Shown here: piece after piece, positions 8,698 through 31,292 of the stretch
Position numbering within the stretch: position 1 is the first letter of the stretch
Layout of the letters: every line of letters begins with the position of its first letter
The notes under the pieces: model-generated
The model's input: the letters and a program-made list of their open reading frames with translations, nothing else
What the model was told of the DNA's origin: nothing
Database searches by the model: none
Assembly: GCA_945868215.1 (NCBI GenBank)
Contig: CAMBLN010000012.1
Coordinates: 1 to 34,114 of the forward strand
Source of the DNA: Opitutus sp. GAS368
GTDB lineage: Bacteria; Verrucomicrobiota; Verrucomicrobiia; Opitutales; Opitutaceae
Reading direction: 5' to 3'
DNA length: 34,114 bases
Made by a program: the position numbers and the translations under genes

Positions 8698-11535
8698 TTA
8701 ATTGGTCACCAGCCGCGCCCGGCCCCACGCGGTCCGGTGCGTGGAATTGTCATGGTTGCCGTTCCACATGAGCTGCTGGATGCGCAGATGGCCGTCGTCG
8801 CTGTTGTTGATCGCCAAATCAAAAAGGAACTCCTTCCCGCTTTCCGGCGTGACTCCGAAGATCGACCAGGGCAACGCGGCCGCGATCACGTAGCCCGAGC
8901 CCGCCACATCCTTCACGACCGTCGCGCGGAATTCTTTCGCGAGCCTCCGTCCATCCGCCTCTCCGCCTGCAAGCGCCACGAACACGGGCGCCTTTTCGGC
9001 GGCCCCGAGCATCACCTGGCGATCGTCGAAAATGATGCCCGCGTTCGTCGTCAGGTCTTTGCCTCCGACGAACAACTCCACTCCGTCCCCGCTCCAAAGG
9101 GCGCCGTGTTCTTTTTTGTTTTGCAGGGGCGTCGGGTCCTTGACCTGGACGTGCACGTAAAGGAACCGTTCATCCCAGCACAGGCGGAAGTCGCCGCGCA
9201 GCCCCGGATTGGGCAGCCCGCTGACGAGCCGCGCGCTGTCCACCGGCTCGGTGGGGACGCCGGGCCAGTTGGTGGTGGTGCCGTCGAGAGCGATGTCCGG
9301 CGGAGCGCGATGCACGCGCACGACTCGGTTGGCTCCCGCTGATTTCTGCCCCGTGAATTTCGGGTCCTGAAACGCATACGGCGCCTCCTTGCCGAGCATC
9401 ACGTCGTAGAGCCGGTCGTTCGTGAGCTTCGCGGCCGCGACCAGATCCGCGTAGGGCCGGTCGGTCACGTCCACCAGTCCGGTGTTGCCGCCTTCGCCGT
9501 GGAAACCGGAGAACCACCGTCCGGTGATGGACTGGTCGGCGTAGATGAACCATTCGGAGCCGACGACAAACGGCAACGAGGCGGACTGTTCGACGTAGTT
9601 GCGGTAGGCGTGCCCGCGGTCGGCGAGCGTCTTCACCTCGATGGCGCCGCCGCCCAGCCCGTTCTCTGTCGATCCGTAGTGCCACTCGCTTAGAATGATC
9701 GGGCGCCCGCCGCTCCACTCGTGGGCGCGCGTCAGGAAGGCTTTATCGATGCCGTGCGTGTAATAGTTGATGCTGACGACATCGACGTATTTTCCGCCGA
9801 TGCGCACGACGTCCTCGTGGCCGGAGGTGCCGGGTGTCCAGCGGCTGCCGATGAGCAGATGATTTGAGTCGTATTTCTTGAACGTGTCGCGCACGAGCGC
9901 GTAGTAAGTTTCCAAATACAATTTCAGGAACGCGTGCATGTCGGCGGCGCCGGCCTCGGTGCGCACAAACAAGGGCGCATCCTTCGCGGATTCGAAATCC
10001 GCAAAGGCTTCCGCGGGCTTCCAGGCGGCGTTGAACGCGGCGATGTCTCCGTATTTTTCACGAAGCATCTCCACGAGCCGGACTTTGGCGGCGACGTTCG
10101 CCTTGTAGGCGGGGATGAGCCGCGGGAGCGACTCGAAGTGTTGCTCGTTGCCGAGGAAGAATCCGATGAGCAGCGGATCGTTCGCGACGGTCGGCAGGTA
10201 GGTCGCAAAGGCCTTGTCTAGAGCGCCCGCCGTCTCCGGGGCGAAGGGATCGATCAACTTGGCCGCGCCGATCTGGTCGGGCAGGACCTTGACGCCCTTC
10301 GCGCTTTCGATGGGAAGGCCCGCAGTGTAGGGCACGCCGAGGCGGCGGGTGGTGTCGTTGGTGACGGAAAAGGCACCGGTGCTGTTGAAACCCCACGCAC
10401 GCAGGCGCGTGATCGACTGCGCGAGCCACTCGTTCTGGTCGTAGGGTTTTCCATACTTGCGAATCCAATTGGCGATCTGGAACGACAACACACCGGGGTT
10501 GCCCTTTTTCCACGCGGTGGCGAATTCACCGTTGGTTTCGGGCAACCATTCGTAGGTGTGCTCGCGCCCCTTCACCACCGTGTAATCGTCGATGTTGTGA
10601 AGGCCGCACACTGCGATGTGGAAAAACACATTGCCCTCGGGCGTGACCAAAACCTGCCGGTTTCCGGCCTGTCCGACGTGGAAGAACCCCGTCTTCTTCA
10701 ATCCATGGACCACCCCGCTGCCGGCGATCCCGCCATAGGCGTCTTTCTCCGGTCCGCCTGGCGCGGGCAACGCGGCGCGCTGCTCGGCGATATCATCACG
10801 CAACTCCTGGTCACTCTTCACCTTGCCCGGATAATCTTTCCGCGCGCTCTGGCCGTAACGGTCCACGAGGAACTTCCGCGGCGACGCCTCATCCCCTTTG
10901 GCGGATGCTGCGACCACCGGCGCACTCAGGCTGAAAACGACCTCGCCTTCGGTCTTTCCCTGAATGTCCGCATAAAAAATATAAACGTAGGAAGCTCCCC
11001 AGCCATGCACGCGGTTGTCCTGCAATTGGTGAAAACCCCAGGGCGTGGTGAGCGAAAAACCGTAGTCCAGCGGATCCACCAGGGTGATGCGCGTGCCCGG
11101 ACCTTGGCCCACAAACTGTCCGGCCGGCTCCGGGGGGATCGCCGCAAGCCCTGCCGACTCGAACGCATAACGCCCGCCTTGGTTGAATTTAATCGGTAAC
11201 ATGATCGCGAACTTCAGGCTCTTCGCCGCCGCCGGCGCTCCGGTGAACCGCACCGCAAGGCGCGAGCCCGCGGCCTCCGCCCGGTAAACCGCGGCCATTC
11301 CCGACGCGTAAACCGCCTTCGCCGTTCCGTCTCCATCGGTTGAATACGACGGCTTTTCGTCCTTGCCGCCGGTCAACATCAGCACCGGCCCCTCCAGCGT
11401 GAACCGGCCCGCGCCGGGCACCGTGATCGCGACGCCTTTCTCCTCGATGGAAAAAACCGCCGGCTTCTCCGGCCGGGACCACGCGCACGCGGTGAGGACA
11501 AAAAACAGGGAAAGACCGATCAGCGGAAATCTCAT
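8698..11535 (-). CDS. glycoside hydrolase (clan GH-A, agarase/GH42-like) lipoprotein with CBM9-like C-terminus
   Basis: This 945-residue protein starts at the ATG at 11535, which places a signal peptide with a lipobox (LTAC, followed by AWSRP) at the N-terminus, so it is probably a lipid-anchored exported enzyme. The central part resembles beta-agarase and GH42-type TIM barrels, with VLVTPEGNVFFHIAVCGLHN, LRAWGFNSTGAFSVTND, IGFFLGNEQHFE and REKYGDIAAFNAAW. The likely acid/base is E464 (GNEQ) and the likely nucleophile is E617 (LSEWHYG). The last ~190 residues look like a CBM9-type sugar-binding module (WDERFLYVHVQVKD, GVELFVGGKD, ALPWSIFGV). The substrate is unknown; an algal or plant polysaccharide is plausible. 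A palindromic site shared with the GH30 gene lies 57 bp upstream of the start. Confidence 0.8.
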   Translation of the reverse strand: MRFPLIGLSLFFVLTACAWSRPEKPAVFSIEEKGVAITVPGAGRFTLEGPVLMLTGGKDEKPSYSTDGDGTAKAVYASGMAAVYRAEAAGSRLAVRFTGAPAAAKSLKFAIMLPIKFNQGGRYAFESAGLAAIPPEPAGQFVGQGPGTRITLVDPLDYGFSLTTPWGFHQLQDNRVHGWGASYVYIFYADIQGKTEGEVVFSLSAPVVAASAKGDEASPRKFLVDRYGQSARKDYPGKVKSDQELRDDIAEQRAALPAPGGPEKDAYGGIAGSGVVHGLKKTGFFHVGQAGNRQVLVTPEGNVFFHIAVCGLHNIDDYTVVKGREHTYEWLPETNGEFATAWKKGNPGVLSFQIANWIRKYGKPYDQNEWLAQSITRLRAWGFNSTGAFSVTNDTTRRLGVPYTAGLPIESAKGVKVLPDQIGAAKLIDPFAPETAGALDKAFATYLPTVANDPLLIGFFLGNEQHFESLPRLIPAYKANVAAKVRLVEMLREKYGDIAAFNAAWKPAEAFADFESAKDAPLFVRTEAGAADMHAFLKLYLETYYALVRDTFKKYDSNHLLIGSRWTPGTSGHEDVVRIGGKYVDVVSINYYTHGIDKAFLTRAHEWSGGRPIILSEWHYGSTENGLGGGAIEVKTLADRGHAYRNYVEQSASLPFVVGSEWFIYADQSITGRWFSGFHGEGGNTGLVDVTDRPYADLVAAAKLTNDRLYDVMLGKEAPYAFQDPKFTGQKSAGANRVVRVHRAPPDIALDGTTTNWPGVPTEPVDSARLVSGLPNPGLRGDFRLCWDERFLYVHVQVKDPTPLQNKKEHGALWSGDGVELFVGGKDLTTNAGIIFDDRQVMLGAAEKAPVFVALAGGEADGRRLAKEFRATVVKDVAGSGYVIAAALPWSIFGVTPESGKEFLFDLAINNSDDGHLRIQQLMWNGNHDNSTHRTAWGRARLVTN

Positions 11536-11591: not shown

Positions 11592-11607
11592 GCAGTTAAC
11601 AGTAAAC
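11592..11607. promoter_or_regulatory. candidate LacI-type operator upstream of the GH lipoprotein gene
   Basis: The sequence GCAGTTAACAGTAAAC contains the odd palindrome GTTAAC-A-GTAAAC with one mismatch. It matches the site upstream of the GH30 gene (13025-13040, read on the minus strand) at 14 of 16 positions. GTTAAC half-sites around a short centre are typical of LacI-family regulators of sugar genes. No such regulator is encoded in the window. Confidence 0.55.
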
Positions 11608-11653
11608 CAACCGATTTCCGATGCGTGCTTAAAAGAAATCCTGCCGCGTTGGT

Positions 11654-12976
11654 TCACCACGTGAACGTGGCGATCGAGCGCGCCCCGATCTCAATCCGCC
11701 CCTCGAATCCATCAAGCGCGATTTCCGCATCCAGCGAAAACGCGAGGGGATTGGCGACGACGAGCACGCGGGAGCCGTCTTCGTTTTGGAACAACAGCGA
11801 GAGCGCCGCCTGATCCCCTCGCAACGGTAGGCAGCGCGCCCCGGGGCGGACGAAATGCGCGAGGTGCTTCATCACGTAAAACTCGGGGTTGTAGGTGATC
11901 GCTCCCGTCGCTCCGTCCACCGTGATCATCGTGTTTTGTTTCCAACCCCAGGTGCTCTCTCCGCCGGGCGCCAGAATCATGTTCCAATACGCGTAGGCAC
12001 GGCAGCCTTGGTTGAAATAGTGCCACATCAGATCAAAAACATAGAAGGCGTAGGACCACGAATTGCGGCCGTCCCCGCATTCGTTCTCCGTCTGGATGAT
12101 CGGCAGCTCCGGCCAGTTCGCGCGGGTCTGCGCCAAGGCACCTTTCCCGTTCCACTGGTATCCCACGCCTTTCACCACGCGACGAACTTCCCGGTCGGAA
12201 AGCAGCGTATGCAGCCAGTTGTGATAACAATCTCCCTCAAGGCTCTCCGGCTGCCAACCCAGCAACAAGCCGCGCTCGATCGTGCCCGCCCAGATTTCAC
12301 ACCGTTCGCCCGCCGCCTCGAACCGCGGCCCCAGGTGATCGCGGATAAAATCACGCATGCTCGCCCCGGTCCACAGGCAGGAGGGAAACTTCTGGTCGGA
12401 GTTCGGTTCGTTCTGCACATGGAGCTGCCCGATCTCCACGCCTTCGTTCCGATAAGCCTTCACAAATTTCAACAGGTAGTCGGCGTAGGCCGCCTGCACG
12501 CGGGGCTCGGAACGAAGCCGGCTGCCATTGTATCGCGCACGCTCCTTCATCCACGCAGGCGGACTCCACGGCGATGCAAACAATCGCAACCCGGGTCGGA
12601 TCGCCTGCGCCGCACGGACATAAGGCAGCAGAAGCCGGTGGTCCCTATCGATCGAGAATCCCTCCATCGCATAATCGTCCGGCGTGTCCGCATGGCTATA
12701 CCAGTCGAGCGCGTAATCGCTCGCCCCGATGGGCAACCGGCAAAAATCAAACGCACACCCGTCGTCTCCGAACAAAGCGTTCACCACCTCCCGCTTCCCC
12801 TCTTCACCTAGCTTGAACAGTTCCCGTGCGCCGAGCTCGTTGAAACAGCCGCCAAATCCCAGCAAGGGCGGACCCGCGGGGCCGGCGATCTGCAGCAGGT
12901 TGCCCCCCAATGCCTTTGCCGTAACCGGCTTTGTTTCACGCCAAACACCTTCCGCCGTGCTGATCACACATTTCAT
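11654..12976 (-). CDS. glycoside hydrolase family 30 enzyme (glucosylceramidase/beta-glucosidase-like), cytoplasmic
   Basis: This 440-residue protein has the GH30 layout: a short N-terminal strand, LLGFGGCFNELGA, a TIM barrel, and a C-terminal beta domain that ends with its last strand. The acid/base is E190 in HVQNEPNSDQ and the nucleophile is E297 in IIQTENECGDG. Further family marks are FASPWSPPAWMK and YWNMILAPGGESTWGW. No signal peptide is present, so it should act in the cytoplasm on imported oligosaccharides, unlike the neighbouring lipoprotein enzyme. GH30 includes beta-glucosidases, beta-1,6-glucanases and xylanases; the exact substrate is not readable from sequence. It probably belongs to one regulon with the downstream gene through the shared upstream palindrome. 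Confidence 0.9.
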   Translation of the reverse strand: MKCVISTAEGVWRETKPVTAKALGGNLLQIAGPAGPPLLGFGGCFNELGARELFKLGEEGKREVVNALFGDDGCAFDFCRLPIGASDYALDWYSHADTPDDYAMEGFSIDRDHRLLLPYVRAAQAIRPGLRLFASPWSPPAWMKERARYNGSRLRSEPRVQAAYADYLLKFVKAYRNEGVEIGQLHVQNEPNSDQKFPSCLWTGASMRDFIRDHLGPRFEAAGERCEIWAGTIERGLLLGWQPESLEGDCYHNWLHTLLSDREVRRVVKGVGYQWNGKGALAQTRANWPELPIIQTENECGDGRNSWSYAFYVFDLMWHYFNQGCRAYAYWNMILAPGGESTWGWKQNTMITVDGATGAITYNPEFYVMKHLAHFVRPGARCLPLRGDQAALSLLFQNEDGSRVLVVANPLAFSLDAEIALDGFEGRIEIGARSIATFTW

Positions 12977-13024
12977 GGAGCGTTATCAGCATCCCGCCCG
13001 ATCCTCGCCACCAGCTGGCATTGT

Positions 13025-13040
13025 GTTAACGGTTAACTGC
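13025..13040. promoter_or_regulatory. candidate LacI-type operator upstream of the GH30 gene
   Basis: GTTAAC-G-GTTAAC (13025-13037) is a perfect odd palindrome followed by TGC. On the minus strand it reads GCAGTTAACCGTTAAC, nearly the same as 11592-11607. It lies 48 bp upstream of the GH30 start, a suitable place for repression or activation. Confidence 0.6.
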
Positions 13041-27450: not shown

Positions 27451-28347
27451 ATGGCCGTGCTCGCAAAAGGCATCGATTATTTCGGCGCAGACGGGTTTCC
27501 CATCACGGCGCGCCGGGTGCGCACGGAGCCGGGCGGACGCCCGTCGCACCTGAACGACGTCACCGAAATCGACCACTATCATGATTTCAGCGAGTTGGTT
27601 TTGATTTTAAGCGGCCGGGGCCGGCACCTCCTGGAGGGCGAGTCCTTTCCGGTCGCCGCGGGCAATGTGTTCGTCGTGCAGGGCAACCAGGTGCACAGCT
27701 TTCGTGACCGCGAAGGACTCGTGCTCGTCAATGTCATGTATGATCCCGCGCGTGTCCTCCTGCCCGCCGGCCTGCTGCGCCGGCTTCCGGGTTACAGCGC
27801 GCTTTTTCTGTTGGAGCCGACGTTTCGCAGCGCGCATCAATTTTCGAGCCGGCTGCAACTTGATCGCGAGGATCTGGGTGCGGCCGAAGCCTTGGCCGAC
27901 CGCATCGAACAGGAGTCAAAGCAGGCCCATCCCGGACATGAGGCGGTCCTTCTGGGACTCCTTATCGAACTGATGGTTTTTCTCTCGCGGCGCTACGGGG
28001 AGAGTGACGCGCACGAGAGCCGCGCGCTGCTAGAAATGGGCAAACTCATCTCCACGCTCGAACAACGTTTCCATGAACCATGGACGCTCGCTCAGATGGC
28101 CAAGATCGCGCATGTTTCGCGCACGAATCTCCTGCGCGTGTTCCGCCAGGCCACGGGCAAGTCGCCCATCGATTACCTCATCGGTTTACGCGTCGAGGCA
28201 GCCAAGCGCCTGCTTCGTCAAAGCACACTCCCGATGACCGACATCGCTCTCGAGACCGGCTTCGGCGACAGCAATTATTTCGCCCGTCAGTTCCGTCTCG
28301 TGACCGGACGCACGCCGACCGCCTTCCGCCGCGCCGGTCGCGCATGA
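27451..28347 (+). CDS. AraC-family transcriptional regulator with cupin domain, probable xylose-operon regulator
   Basis: This 298-residue protein has an N-terminal cupin sensor at about residues 25-110 (DHYHDFSELVLILSGRGRHLLEGES, then FVVQGNQVHSF). It is joined to two helix-turn-helix motifs at about 195-295: WTLAQMAKIAHVSRTNLLRVFRQ and LPMTDIALETGFGDSNYFARQF. The end RTPTAFRR is the usual AraC C-terminus. The architecture matches RhaS/RhaR-type sugar regulators. It lies 97 bp upstream of xylB in the same orientation, so control of xylBA is likely. The ligand is inferred to be a sugar; xylose is the simplest choice from context. Confidence 0.9.
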   Translation: MAVLAKGIDYFGADGFPITARRVRTEPGGRPSHLNDVTEIDHYHDFSELVLILSGRGRHLLEGESFPVAAGNVFVVQGNQVHSFRDREGLVLVNVMYDPARVLLPAGLLRRLPGYSALFLLEPTFRSAHQFSSRLQLDREDLGAAEALADRIEQESKQAHPGHEAVLLGLLIELMVFLSRRYGESDAHESRALLEMGKLISTLEQRFHEPWTLAQMAKIAHVSRTNLLRVFRQATGKSPIDYLIGLRVEAAKRLLRQSTLPMTDIALETGFGDSNYFARQFRLVTGRTPTAFRRAGRA

Positions 28348-28364
28348 TTCCTGTCCGATTGTGC

Positions 28365-28380
28365 TAATTTAGGTAAATTA
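28365..28380. promoter_or_regulatory. perfect AT-rich palindrome upstream of xylB
   Basis: TAATTTA-GG-TAAATTA is a perfect palindrome with 7-bp arms, 64 bp before the chosen xylB start. It is overlapped on the left by TTGTGCTA (28359-28366), an octamer that also occurs just before the AraC-type gene (27435-27442). Either could be the regulator's site or part of the promoter. Confidence 0.4.
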
Positions 28381-28444
28381 TGGTCTTTTTGTGAAGGCAG
28401 GCCGGTGGACTTCCTGCTAGGGTGGGATGCTTTCAACCCCCACC

Positions 28445-29926
28445 ATGTTTCTCCTCGGACTCGATCTCGGCAGCTCCGCCGTCAAAGCCTCGCTTCTTGA
28501 TGCCGCCACCGGCCGCGTTGTTTCATCCGCGCAATCGCCCCAAGGCGAAGAATTGCCCATCTCCGCGCCGCAGCCCGGATGGGCCGAACAGGATCCCGCC
28601 ATGTGGTGGGAACACACCGCGCTCGCCATCCGCGCCGCGCTCGCCGGCCAGGACGCCTCGCAGGTCGCCGCCATCGGCATCTCCTACCAGATGCACGGCC
28701 TCGTCACCCTCGACGCGCACCACCAGCCCGTGCGTCCCGCCATCATCTGGTGCGACAGTCGTGCCGTGGAGATCGGCGCGCAGGCCTTCGCCGAACTGGG
28801 CACCGCCGCCTGCCTCGGCCGCCTGCTCAACTCCCCGGGCAACTTCACCGCGTCAAAGCTCCGCTGGGTTCAGAAAAACGAGCCCGCCCACTTTGCCCGT
28901 ATCCGCAAAATCATGCTCCCGGGCGACTACCTCGCTCTCCGCCTGACCGGCGAAACGCAAACCACCGCTTCCGGCCTTTCCGAGGGCACACTCTGGGATT
29001 TCTCCACCAACGCCCCCGCCGATTTCCTCCTGCAACACTGGGGGCTCGACCGCGCGCTCCTCTCCACGCTCACCCCGACCTTTGGCAAACAAGCGGGTGT
29101 GCTCGCCTCCGTCGCCGCCAACCTCGGTCTGCCCGCCGGCATTCCGGTCGCCTACCGCGCCGGCGACCAGCCCAACAACGCCTTTTCCCTCAACGTCCTC
29201 AACCCCGGCGAAATCGCCGCGACCGGCGGCACCTCGGGCGTCGTTTACGGCGTGACCGACCAACTCGCCTATGACCCGCAGAGCCGTGTCAACGGCTTTG
29301 CCCACGTCAACCACACCGCGAGCGATCCGCGCGTCGGCGTCCTCCTCTGCATCAACGGCACCGGCATCCTCTACGCTTGGTTGCGCCGCACGCTTGGCGG
29401 CAACCTCTCGTATCCGGAACTCAATACGCTCGCCGCCGCCGTCCCCGCCGGCAGCGAGGGCCTCTCCGTGCTTCCCTTCGGCAACGGCGCCGAACGCATG
29501 CTAGGCAACCGCCGCATCGGCTCGCAATGGAGCGGCCTCGACTTCCTCCGCCACACGCCCGGGCACCTCGCCCGCGCCGCGCAGGAGGGCATCGCGTTCT
29601 CCTTCAGCCACGGTATCGCCGGCATGAAGGCCACCGGTCTCACCCCGAAGAAACTCCGCGCGGGCAACGCCAATCTTTTCCTCAGCCCCGTGTTCCGCGA
29701 CACGCTCGCCGCCACCCTCGGCGTGAGCATCGAGCTCGTCCGCACCGACGGCGCCGCCGGTGCCGCCCGCGGCGCGGGCCTCGGTGCCGGCATCTACAAA
29801 ACCTCCGCCGAGGCCTTCAACGGTCTCGAAGTCATCGAAACCATCAACCCGAACCCCGCGCTCGTCGGCCCCTGCCAGGACGCCGCCGCCCGCTGGGAAG
29901 ACACGCTCGCAAAAGCCCTTTCCTGA
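28445..29926 (+). CDS. xylB: xylulokinase (FGGY family)
   Basis: This 493-residue kinase phosphorylates D-xylulose to xylulose-5-phosphate with ATP. The ATG at 28445 is preferred because the family begins MxxGxDLGSS; an ATG at 28427 would add six residues. Phosphate 1 is FLLGLDLGSSAVKASLLD. Substrate-contact blocks include GISYQMHGLVTLD and IWCDSRAVEIGAQ. The catalytic Asp is expected in AYRAGDQPNNAFSLNVLNPG, with the FGGY-type second phosphate motif near GEIAATGGTSG. The C-terminal part has GAARGAGLGAGI. It is followed 28 bp later by xylA, and together they carry xylose into the pentose phosphate pathway. Confidence 0.95.
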   Translation: MFLLGLDLGSSAVKASLLDAATGRVVSSAQSPQGEELPISAPQPGWAEQDPAMWWEHTALAIRAALAGQDASQVAAIGISYQMHGLVTLDAHHQPVRPAIIWCDSRAVEIGAQAFAELGTAACLGRLLNSPGNFTASKLRWVQKNEPAHFARIRKIMLPGDYLALRLTGETQTTASGLSEGTLWDFSTNAPADFLLQHWGLDRALLSTLTPTFGKQAGVLASVAANLGLPAGIPVAYRAGDQPNNAFSLNVLNPGEIAATGGTSGVVYGVTDQLAYDPQSRVNGFAHVNHTASDPRVGVLLCINGTGILYAWLRRTLGGNLSYPELNTLAAAVPAGSEGLSVLPFGNGAERMLGNRRIGSQWSGLDFLRHTPGHLARAAQEGIAFSFSHGIAGMKATGLTPKKLRAGNANLFLSPVFRDTLAATLGVSIELVRTDGAAGAARGAGLGAGIYKTSAEAFNGLEVIETINPNPALVGPCQDAAARWEDTLAKALS

Positions 29927-29954
29927 TTCTGTCCAACTTTCCTCCCAAACTTCC

Positions 29955-31292
29955 ATGTCCACGAAACTCACCACCGGTTCCAAGACCTACTTCCCCAACA
30001 TCGGCCGCATCGCCTTCGAAGGCGTCGATTCGACTAATCCGCTCGCGTTCCGTTACTACGACGCCAACCGCGTCGTCGCCGGCCGCTCACTCGAAAGCTG
30101 GCTGCGCTATGCCGTCTCCTACTGGCACAGCTTCTGTGGCAACGGCGCCGATCCCTTCGGCGCGCCCACCCGCCCGATGCCTTGGCTCACCGCCACCGAC
30201 CCGATCCAGCGCGCCAAGGACAAAGCCGACGCCGCCTTCGAGTTCATCACCAAGATCGGCGCGCCTTACTACTGCTTCCATGACACCGACATCATCGACG
30301 AGGCCGACACCACGCTCGCCGAATTCGAGAAACGCATGGGCGCCATCGTTCCTTATCTGAAGGAAAAACAAGCCGCCTCCGGTGTGAAACTCCTCTGGGG
30401 CACCGCCAACCTCTTCAGCAACCCGCGCTTCATGAACGGCGCGTCCACCAACCCCGAGTTCTCCATCCTCGCCCGCGCCGGCGGACAACTCAAAGGCGCC
30501 ATCGACGCCACCATCGCCCTCGGCGGCGAAGGTTACGTTTTCTGGGGCGGCCGCGAAGGCTACCTCACTCTCCTCAACACCGATATGAAGCGCGAACGCG
30601 AACACTTCGCCCGCTTCCTCACCATCGCCCGCGACTACGCGCGCGCCCAGGGGTTCAAGGGCAAGTTCTTCATCGAGCCCAAGCCCTGCGAGCCCACCAA
30701 ACACCAGTATGACTTCGACGCCGCGACCGTCATCGGCTTCCTGCGCGAGTTCAACCTGCTCTCGGACTTTGCCCTCAACATCGAGGTCAACCACGCCACG
30801 CTCGCCGGCCACACCTTCCCGCACGAGCTGCAAGTCTCCGCCGACGCCGGTCTCCTCGGCAGCGTGGACGCCAACCGCGGCGACGTGCAAAACGGCTGGG
30901 ACACCGACCAGTTCCCCATCGATCCGCTCGAACTCACCGAGGCCATGATGGTCATCATCAAAGCCGGCGGCTTCACCCACGGCGGCGTCAACTTCGACGC
31001 CAAAATCCGTCGCAACTCGACCGACCTCGAAGACCTCTTCATCGCCCACGTGTCCGGCATGGACGCCTTCGCCCGCGCCGCCATCGCCGCCGAGAAGATC
31101 CTCACCAAGTCCGAAATTCCCGGCCTCGTGAAAGCCCGTTACGCCTCCTTCGACGCCGGCCAGGGCAAGGCCTACGAAGACGGCAAGCTCACGCTCACCG
31201 ACCTCCACAAGATCGCCCACGAACAAGGCGAAGTCACTCCGAAGAGCGGCAAGCAGGAACTCTACGAAAGCATCCTTCTCCGCCACATATAA
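29955..31292 (+). CDS. xylA: xylose isomerase
   Basis: This 445-residue enzyme interconverts D-xylose and D-xylulose. The length and N-terminal FPNIGRIAFEG place it in the longer class II. Catalytic His109 and Asp112 lie in YYCFHDTDIIDE. VFWGGREGYLTLLNTD and the metal ligand E241 in FIEPKPCEPTKHQYDF follow, then EVNHATLAGHTFPHE and SVDANRGDVQNGWDTDQFP with further metal ligands. Residue 245 is Cys, where Gln is usual in this block. The ATG at 29955 is 28 bp after the xylB stop. The pair ends in a hairpin (31291-31309) without a T-run, then the bidirectional terminator. Confidence 0.97.
   Translation: MSTKLTTGSKTYFPNIGRIAFEGVDSTNPLAFRYYDANRVVAGRSLESWLRYAVSYWHSFCGNGADPFGAPTRPMPWLTATDPIQRAKDKADAAFEFITKIGAPYYCFHDTDIIDEADTTLAEFEKRMGAIVPYLKEKQAASGVKLLWGTANLFSNPRFMNGASTNPEFSILARAGGQLKGAIDATIALGGEGYVFWGGREGYLTLLNTDMKREREHFARFLTIARDYARAQGFKGKFFIEPKPCEPTKHQYDFDAATVIGFLREFNLLSDFALNIEVNHATLAGHTFPHELQVSADAGLLGSVDANRGDVQNGWDTDQFPIDPLELTEAMMVIIKAGGFTHGGVNFDAKIRRNSTDLEDLFIAHVSGMDAFARAAIAAEKILTKSEIPGLVKARYASFDAGQGKAYEDGKLTLTDLHKIAHEQGEVTPKSGKQELYESILLRHI

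What the first reader, a model, noticed from the sequence alone, without database searches (positions are those of the whole stretch)
11592..13040. Two glycoside hydrolase genes share an almost identical palindromic operator
GCAGTTAACAGTAAAC upstream of the GH lipoprotein gene and GCAGTTAACCGTTAAC upstream of the GH30 gene (minus strand) agree at 14 of 16 bases. The second contains the perfect palindrome GTTAAC-G-GTTAAC. One enzyme is exported and the other is cytoplasmic, so a single sugar signal may control outer hydrolysis and inner finishing of one polysaccharide. LacI-family regulators typically use such sites. No regulator is encoded here, so it must be elsewhere in the genome.
Basis: partly seen in the sequence, partly recalled or inferred. 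Interest (0 to 1): 0.6.

Follow-up and report, generated by a model that had tools for sequence, protein, structure and literature searches.

The report
Shared LacI operator, beta-glucan enzyme genes
Two neighbouring sugar-cutting enzyme genes carry the same short DNA switch, and the same switch sits in front of one LacI-type repressor gene elsewhere in the genome, so one repressor very probably controls them together; this is a well-supported but ordinary kind of sugar regulon in a poorly studied bacterial lineage.

Summary
GCAGTTAACAGTAAAC (11592-11607) and GCAGTTAACCGTTAAC (13040-13025, minus) match at 14 of 16 bases and lie 59 and 48 bp upstream of two enzyme genes: a GH50-agarase-like lipoprotein with a CBM9 module, and a leaderless GH30. 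The conserved unit is an odd palindrome, TTAAC-N-GTTAA. In 3.07 Mb the perfect core occurs at only two places: the GH30 promoter and 3 bp before the ATG of a LacI-family gene (contig C143). All five close orthologs and paralogs of that LacI have the core just before their own start. Remote homologs carry a related palindrome in which the base read by recognition-helix residue 22 changes with the residue (R with G, M/L with T). Sites are conserved upstream of the GH30 and GH50-like orthologs in two congeners. In one, seven sites cluster in 28 kb with GH16, GH94, GH1 and another LacI. A probable third own target is a GH158-GH149 (beta-1,3-glucan) operon. Two corrections: relaxed genome scans give only noise, and odd palindromes are the minority form for LacI proteins. 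Binding is untested. New member of a known kind.

The parts
13025..13040 (-). Operator 2, GCAGTTAACCGTTAAC; core GTTAACCGTTAAC at 13025-13037, 48 bp upstream of the GH30 ATG (12976)
11592..11607 (+). Operator 1, GCAGTTAACAGTAAAC; core 11595-11607, 59 bp upstream of the lipoprotein ATG (11535), in the gap between GH30 and the lipoprotein gene
11654..12976 (-). GH30 glycoside hydrolase, 440 aa, no signal peptide; closest model endo-1,6-beta-glucanase (below that model's cut-off); conserved HVQNEP and TENEC catalytic motifs
8698..11535 (-). Lipoprotein (lipobox LTAC), 945 aa: GH50 beta-agarase-like catalytic region plus C-terminal CBM9 module

Best explanation
The two 16-mers are operators of a LacI-family repressor that binds the odd palindrome TTAAC-N-GTTAA. 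In this genome the repressor is most likely the 326-aa LacI-A protein encoded at G000:C143:896-1876, which also represses itself through a site 3 bp before its start codon. Without inducer a dimer on operator 2 blocks the GH30 promoter and one on operator 1 blocks the GH50-like lipoprotein (and any read-through from GH30). A sugar released from a glucan-type polysaccharide relieves repression of the exported GH50-like/CBM9 protein, the cytoplasmic GH30 and, probably, a GH158-GH149 beta-1,3-glucan operon on C37. Shown by sequence: the sites, their conservation, the autoregulatory site in all LacI-A copies, and covariation of operator with recognition helix. Inferred: binding, repression rather than activation, the inducer, and the substrate.
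For: The perfect 11-mer core is present at only two places in 3.07 Mb: the GH30 promoter and the LacI-A promoter. All five LacI-A genes in three genomes have the core 3-14 bp before the ATG, as the longest invariant block of their upstream DNA. Remote LacI-A homologs with TVSR helices have TGCAACNGTTGCA or TTGTAACGGTTACAA upstream of their genes, mostly right before the start; the G/T switch follows residue 22 (R vs M/L), as in the published code where arginine pairs with G at NT-6 (PMC2978694). Sites are conserved at the GH30 orthologs of G004 and G010 and the GH50-like orthologs of G004 and G010. In G010 seven of 35 core sites fall in 28 kb holding GH16, GH30/GH94, a LacI (B type), GH50-like and GH1 genes (binomial P about 4e-9 before window correction). 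In the own genome a one-mismatch site lies 126 bp upstream of GH158 and GH149 genes.
Against: No binding or expression data. In G004 and G010 the LacI inside the locus with the clustered sites is LacI-B (78% identical to each other, about 32-36% to LacI-A), and the own genome has no LacI-B ortholog, so assigning LacI-A to the GH promoters rests on identical core sites and similar helices. The C63 LacI of the own genome has the same helix residues (VATVSM). Apart from three or four sites the one-mismatch hits equal the control. The GH158 site is not conserved at homologous genes of other genomes.
Confidence: 0.7

Rival explanations
1. The operators are real, but another LacI-family protein reads them here: the C63 LacI with the same recognition-helix residues, or an unassembled LacI-B. 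The LacI-A site would then be only its own operator.
For: LacI-B sits with these operators in G010 and G004; the C63 LacI has the same SVATVSM helix; the genome is in 220 contigs; several LacI groups in the genus have similar sites.
Against: No TTAACNGTTAA-like site lies before the C63 LacI or its likely orthologs in G004 and G009. No LacI-B ortholog was found in a 99.8% complete genome. LacI-A has the matching site at its own promoter.
Confidence: 0.2
2. GH30 and the lipoprotein form one operon read from the GH30 promoter; site 1 in the 118-bp gap is an auxiliary operator for looping or a roadblock, not the operator of a separate promoter.
For: Same strand, 118-bp gap, centres 1430 bp apart, no clear sigma-70 promoter found at either site.
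Against: In G004 and G010 the GH50-like gene is unlinked from GH30 and has its own site or sites close upstream, so a site for its own promoter is ancestral or convergent.
Confidence: 0.3
3. Chance resemblance of two AT-rich palindromes in a GC-rich genome.
For: At 2-3 mismatches hits do not exceed the control; many one-mismatch hits in other congeners lie inside reading frames.
Against: Conserved at orthologous promoters in congeners and before every LacI-A gene; covariation with the recognition helix.
Confidence: 0.03

Closest known systems
LacI-family local sugar regulons (RegPrecise set, PMC4052901)
   Same: Autoregulated LacI-type gene; palindromic operators 30-140 bp upstream of catabolic glycosidase genes; small regulon
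   Different: Odd palindrome with free centre, against even palindromes in 1251 of 1303 regulators; the paper's text does not mention Verrucomicrobia
E. coli LacI/lac operator and other odd-operator members (LacR, GalR, EbgR)
   Same: Odd palindrome, LacI-type HTH, several operators
   Different: T at the position that pairs with helix residue 22 (M/L instead of R); in LacI-A and LacI-B the hinge residue at the place of lac Leu56 is G or A (my alignment by eye); half-sites closer together
Laminarin / beta-1,3(1,6)-glucan utilization loci (GH158, GH149, GH30, GH16, GH94)
   Same: The same enzyme families carry or adjoin the operators in the own genome and in G010
   Different: No SusCD or other transporter found under the operator; scattered over contigs; regulated by LacI type; includes a GH50-like CBM9 lipoprotein of unknown substrate

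Membership tests
LacI-family transcription factor (C143 protein) | N-terminal LacI HTH domain above the curated cut-off | tested here: met
   PF00356 37.1 bits against cut-off 27; 41.1 bits in the genome scan
LacI-family transcription factor (C143 protein) | C-terminal periplasmic-binding-protein-like effector domain | tested here: inconclusive
   Length 326 aa fits and other LacI align over nearly the full length, but Pfam reports no PBP domain for it
LacI-family regulon | Palindromic operator shared by regulator gene and target genes, conserved in orthologs | tested here: met
LacI-family regulon | Even palindrome with central CG (majority form, not required) | tested here: not met
   TTAAC-N-GTTAA is odd in every copy; the odd form is known for about 4% of regulators
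LacI-family regulon | Sugar-dependent binding | not testable with these tools
   needs gel shift or titration
GH30 (window 11654-12976) | GH30 TIM-barrel model and the two catalytic glutamates | tested here: met
   PF02055 144 bits, cut-off 23; invariant HVQNEP and E297 in TENEC
GH50 agarase (window 8698-11535) | Sequence similarity to GH50 catalytic domain | tested here: met
   6xj9 6e-51, 4bq2 1e-49; that these entries are GH50 is from my own knowledge
GH50 agarase (window 8698-11535) | Agarase activity | not testable with these tools
   assay needed; no agar pathway seen

The most novel reading that the evidence does not exclude
A lineage-wide variant of LacI-DNA recognition in these bacteria: LacI-A and LacI-B type proteins lack the hinge leucine that normally intercalates at a central CG and instead read a contracted 13-bp odd palindrome (xTTAAC-N-GTTAAx, or TGCAAC-N-GTTGCA) in which helix residue 22 still sets the outer base. 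It would coordinate scattered polysaccharide genes without polysaccharide-locus clustering.
Probability: 0.3. Interest if true: 0.5.

Novelty: new member of a known kind. Interest (0 to 1): 0.38.

Why it matters
It gives a concrete regulator-operator-target set for polysaccharide use in a lineage with dozens of LacI paralogs in some genomes, for which my literature searches found no described LacI regulon. The recognition-helix/operator covariation offers a way to pair other orphan LacI genes with their targets here. It also suggests that odd, N-centred operators may be common in this lineage although rare in curated sets.

Tried and rejected
Relaxed genome scans of the 16-mer and 13-mer: no excess over the reversed-pattern control, so they cannot define a large regulon. 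Genus-wide one-mismatch scan (55 sites vs 17 control): in G002, G007, G008 and G012 many hits lie in long reading frames, repeats or flagellin genes and were set aside as noise. The LacI of the G004/G009 GH50-like locus (LacI-C) as the own regulator: no ortholog in the own genome, best 39%. The AraC-type (27451) and IclR-type (17189) genes of the window as regulators: no operator copy near either. GH30 homologs in named genomes: the two closest hits (L255 Cerasicoccus, L256 Verrucomicrobia bacterium) have no core site within 300 bp upstream; two of the 80 hits, in Litchfieldia and Tamlana, have a one-mismatch core, not followed up. Sigma-70 promoter and terminator scans: at chance level. A survey of 86 LacI upstream regions gave 12 long odd palindromes vs 1 even (shuffles 3.8 and 3.2), but the set is enriched for LacI-A relatives and holds a few genes twice, so it does not prove a rule for all LacI here. 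GH158 homologs elsewhere: no conserved core site.

Full report
Observation. They face opposite ways, but their shared unit is a palindrome, TTAAC-N-GTTAA, so orientation does not matter. Both genes are on the minus strand: GH30 (12976-11654) first, then the lipoprotein gene (start 11535, lipobox LTAC, stop 8698). Site 2 ends 48 bp before the GH30 ATG. Site 1 ends 59 bp before the lipoprotein ATG, inside the 118-bp gap between the genes.

Chance. The genome (G000, 3.07 Mb, 220 contigs, the window being all of contig C12) has GTTAACNGTTAAC with at most one mismatch only at these two places, reversed control 0. At two or three mismatches hits equal the control, so a scan alone would not convince. 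The perfect 11-mer core TTAACNGTTAA is present at two places only: the GH30 promoter and C143:882-892, 3 bp before the ATG of a LacI-family gene.

Regulator. The C143 protein (LacI-A, 326 aa) has four close orthologs or paralogs: G004 C130 (68%), C65 and C88, and G010 C2 (62%). All five genes carry the core, with at most one mismatch, 3-14 bp before the ATG, as the longest invariant block in an otherwise diverged upstream alignment. From the hit density of each genome the chance of this is negligible even allowing for shared descent. Remote homologs in other genera with a TVSR helix carry TGCAAC-N-GTTGCA or TTGTAAC-G-GTTACAA upstream of their own gene, mostly right before its start. The homolog with helix VATVSR differs from own LacI-A (VATVSM) at the residue equivalent to lac R22, and its operator differs by G for T at the matching base. 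This is the pairing found across the family: arginine at AA-20 (lac numbering 22) with G at NT-6 (PMC2978694). Of the 11 LacI genes of the genome, LacI-A is therefore the best candidate. None of the other own LacI upstream regions I examined holds the core.

Targets in relatives. The GH30 orthologs of G004 (84%) and G010 (53-56%) have the site about 50 bp upstream, and the GH50-like orthologs of G004 and G010 have one and two sites. In G010, 28 kb hold seven sites serving GH16, the divergent GH30/GH94 pair, a second LacI (LacI-B), a large exported protein, the GH50-like gene and a GH1 gene. G004 C14 has a matching cluster with LacI-B and GH94. LacI-B is absent from the own genome, so cross-use of the operator by LacI-A is an inference and the main weakness.

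Targets in the own genome. Beyond LacI-A, GH30 and the GH50-like gene, one site (C37:6422-6434, GTTAACCGTTTAT) lies 126 bp upstream of genes matching GH158 (9oro 6e-91, 6pal 3e-65) and a beta-1,3-oligosaccharide phosphorylase, family GH149 (6hq6 6e-225). With GH30 (nearest model endo-1,6-beta-glucanase, below cut-off) this points to a beta-1,3/1,6-glucan such as laminarin. The lipoprotein is GH50-agarase-like with a CBM9 module; its substrate is not known, so a single shared polysaccharide is plausible but not shown. No transporter with a site was found.

Mechanism. Most likely a LacI-A dimer represses its own gene and the two window genes until a glucan-derived sugar releases it. Whether the two window genes have separate promoters or share one transcript with an internal operator is open. 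The promoter scan is uninformative; separate sites at unlinked loci in relatives favour separate control.

Relation to known systems. Autoregulated LacI-family regulons over glycosidases are ordinary (72% of the regulators surveyed are autoregulated). What differs is the odd, N-centred operator: 96% of surveyed motifs are even. LacI-A and LacI-B also have G or A where the hinge leucine normally sits (my alignment by eye). LacI-C keeps that leucine yet lies next to an odd site, so the hinge explanation is unproven. I file this as a new member of a known kind.

Taxonomy.

Noticed in passing
G004:C10:80682-80798 (L112), directly downstream of the GH30 ortholog: A short remnant (residues 914-959, 69% identical) of the C-terminus of the GH50-like lipoprotein follows the GH30 stop, suggesting the GH30-lipoprotein pair is ancestral and was largely deleted there while another copy sits on a different contig.
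   Followed up: partly
L108:481-753, L226:6454-7227, L230:1983-2753, L231:7301-8116, L224:12843-13628, L227:9914-10711: LacI-A and LacI-B genes are usually divergent from a small exported protein, with the operator between them; G004:C29:1973 has the operator before another such protein without an adjacent LacI gene.
   Followed up: partly
window 27451-31292; L114:2618-6253: An AraC-type regulator, xylulokinase and xylose isomerase cluster lies about 15 kb from the GH30 gene in the window and directly beside the GH16/GH30 cluster in G010; it has no copy of the operator in the window.
   Followed up: no
G000:C23:12000-22000 (L209): A second GH158/GH30 pair with sugar-ABC permease-like genes and another LacI gene, without the TTAACNGTTAA core: probably a separate glucan regulon.
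   Followed up: no
L335, L336 (G004:C163, G009:C232): LacI-C paralogs on contigs that also hold paralogous GH50-like genes have a related but different odd palindrome (TTGACAGTCAA / TGACAGTCA), hinting that paralog pairs diverged together with their operators.
   Followed up: partly
L043 and L374 (LacI genes at G000:C17 and G010:C2:994806): Long odd palindromes ACATTACAGTAATGT and CCTCTCTTTACTGTAAAGAGAGG upstream of other LacI genes, with the same AC-N-GT centre.
   Followed up: no
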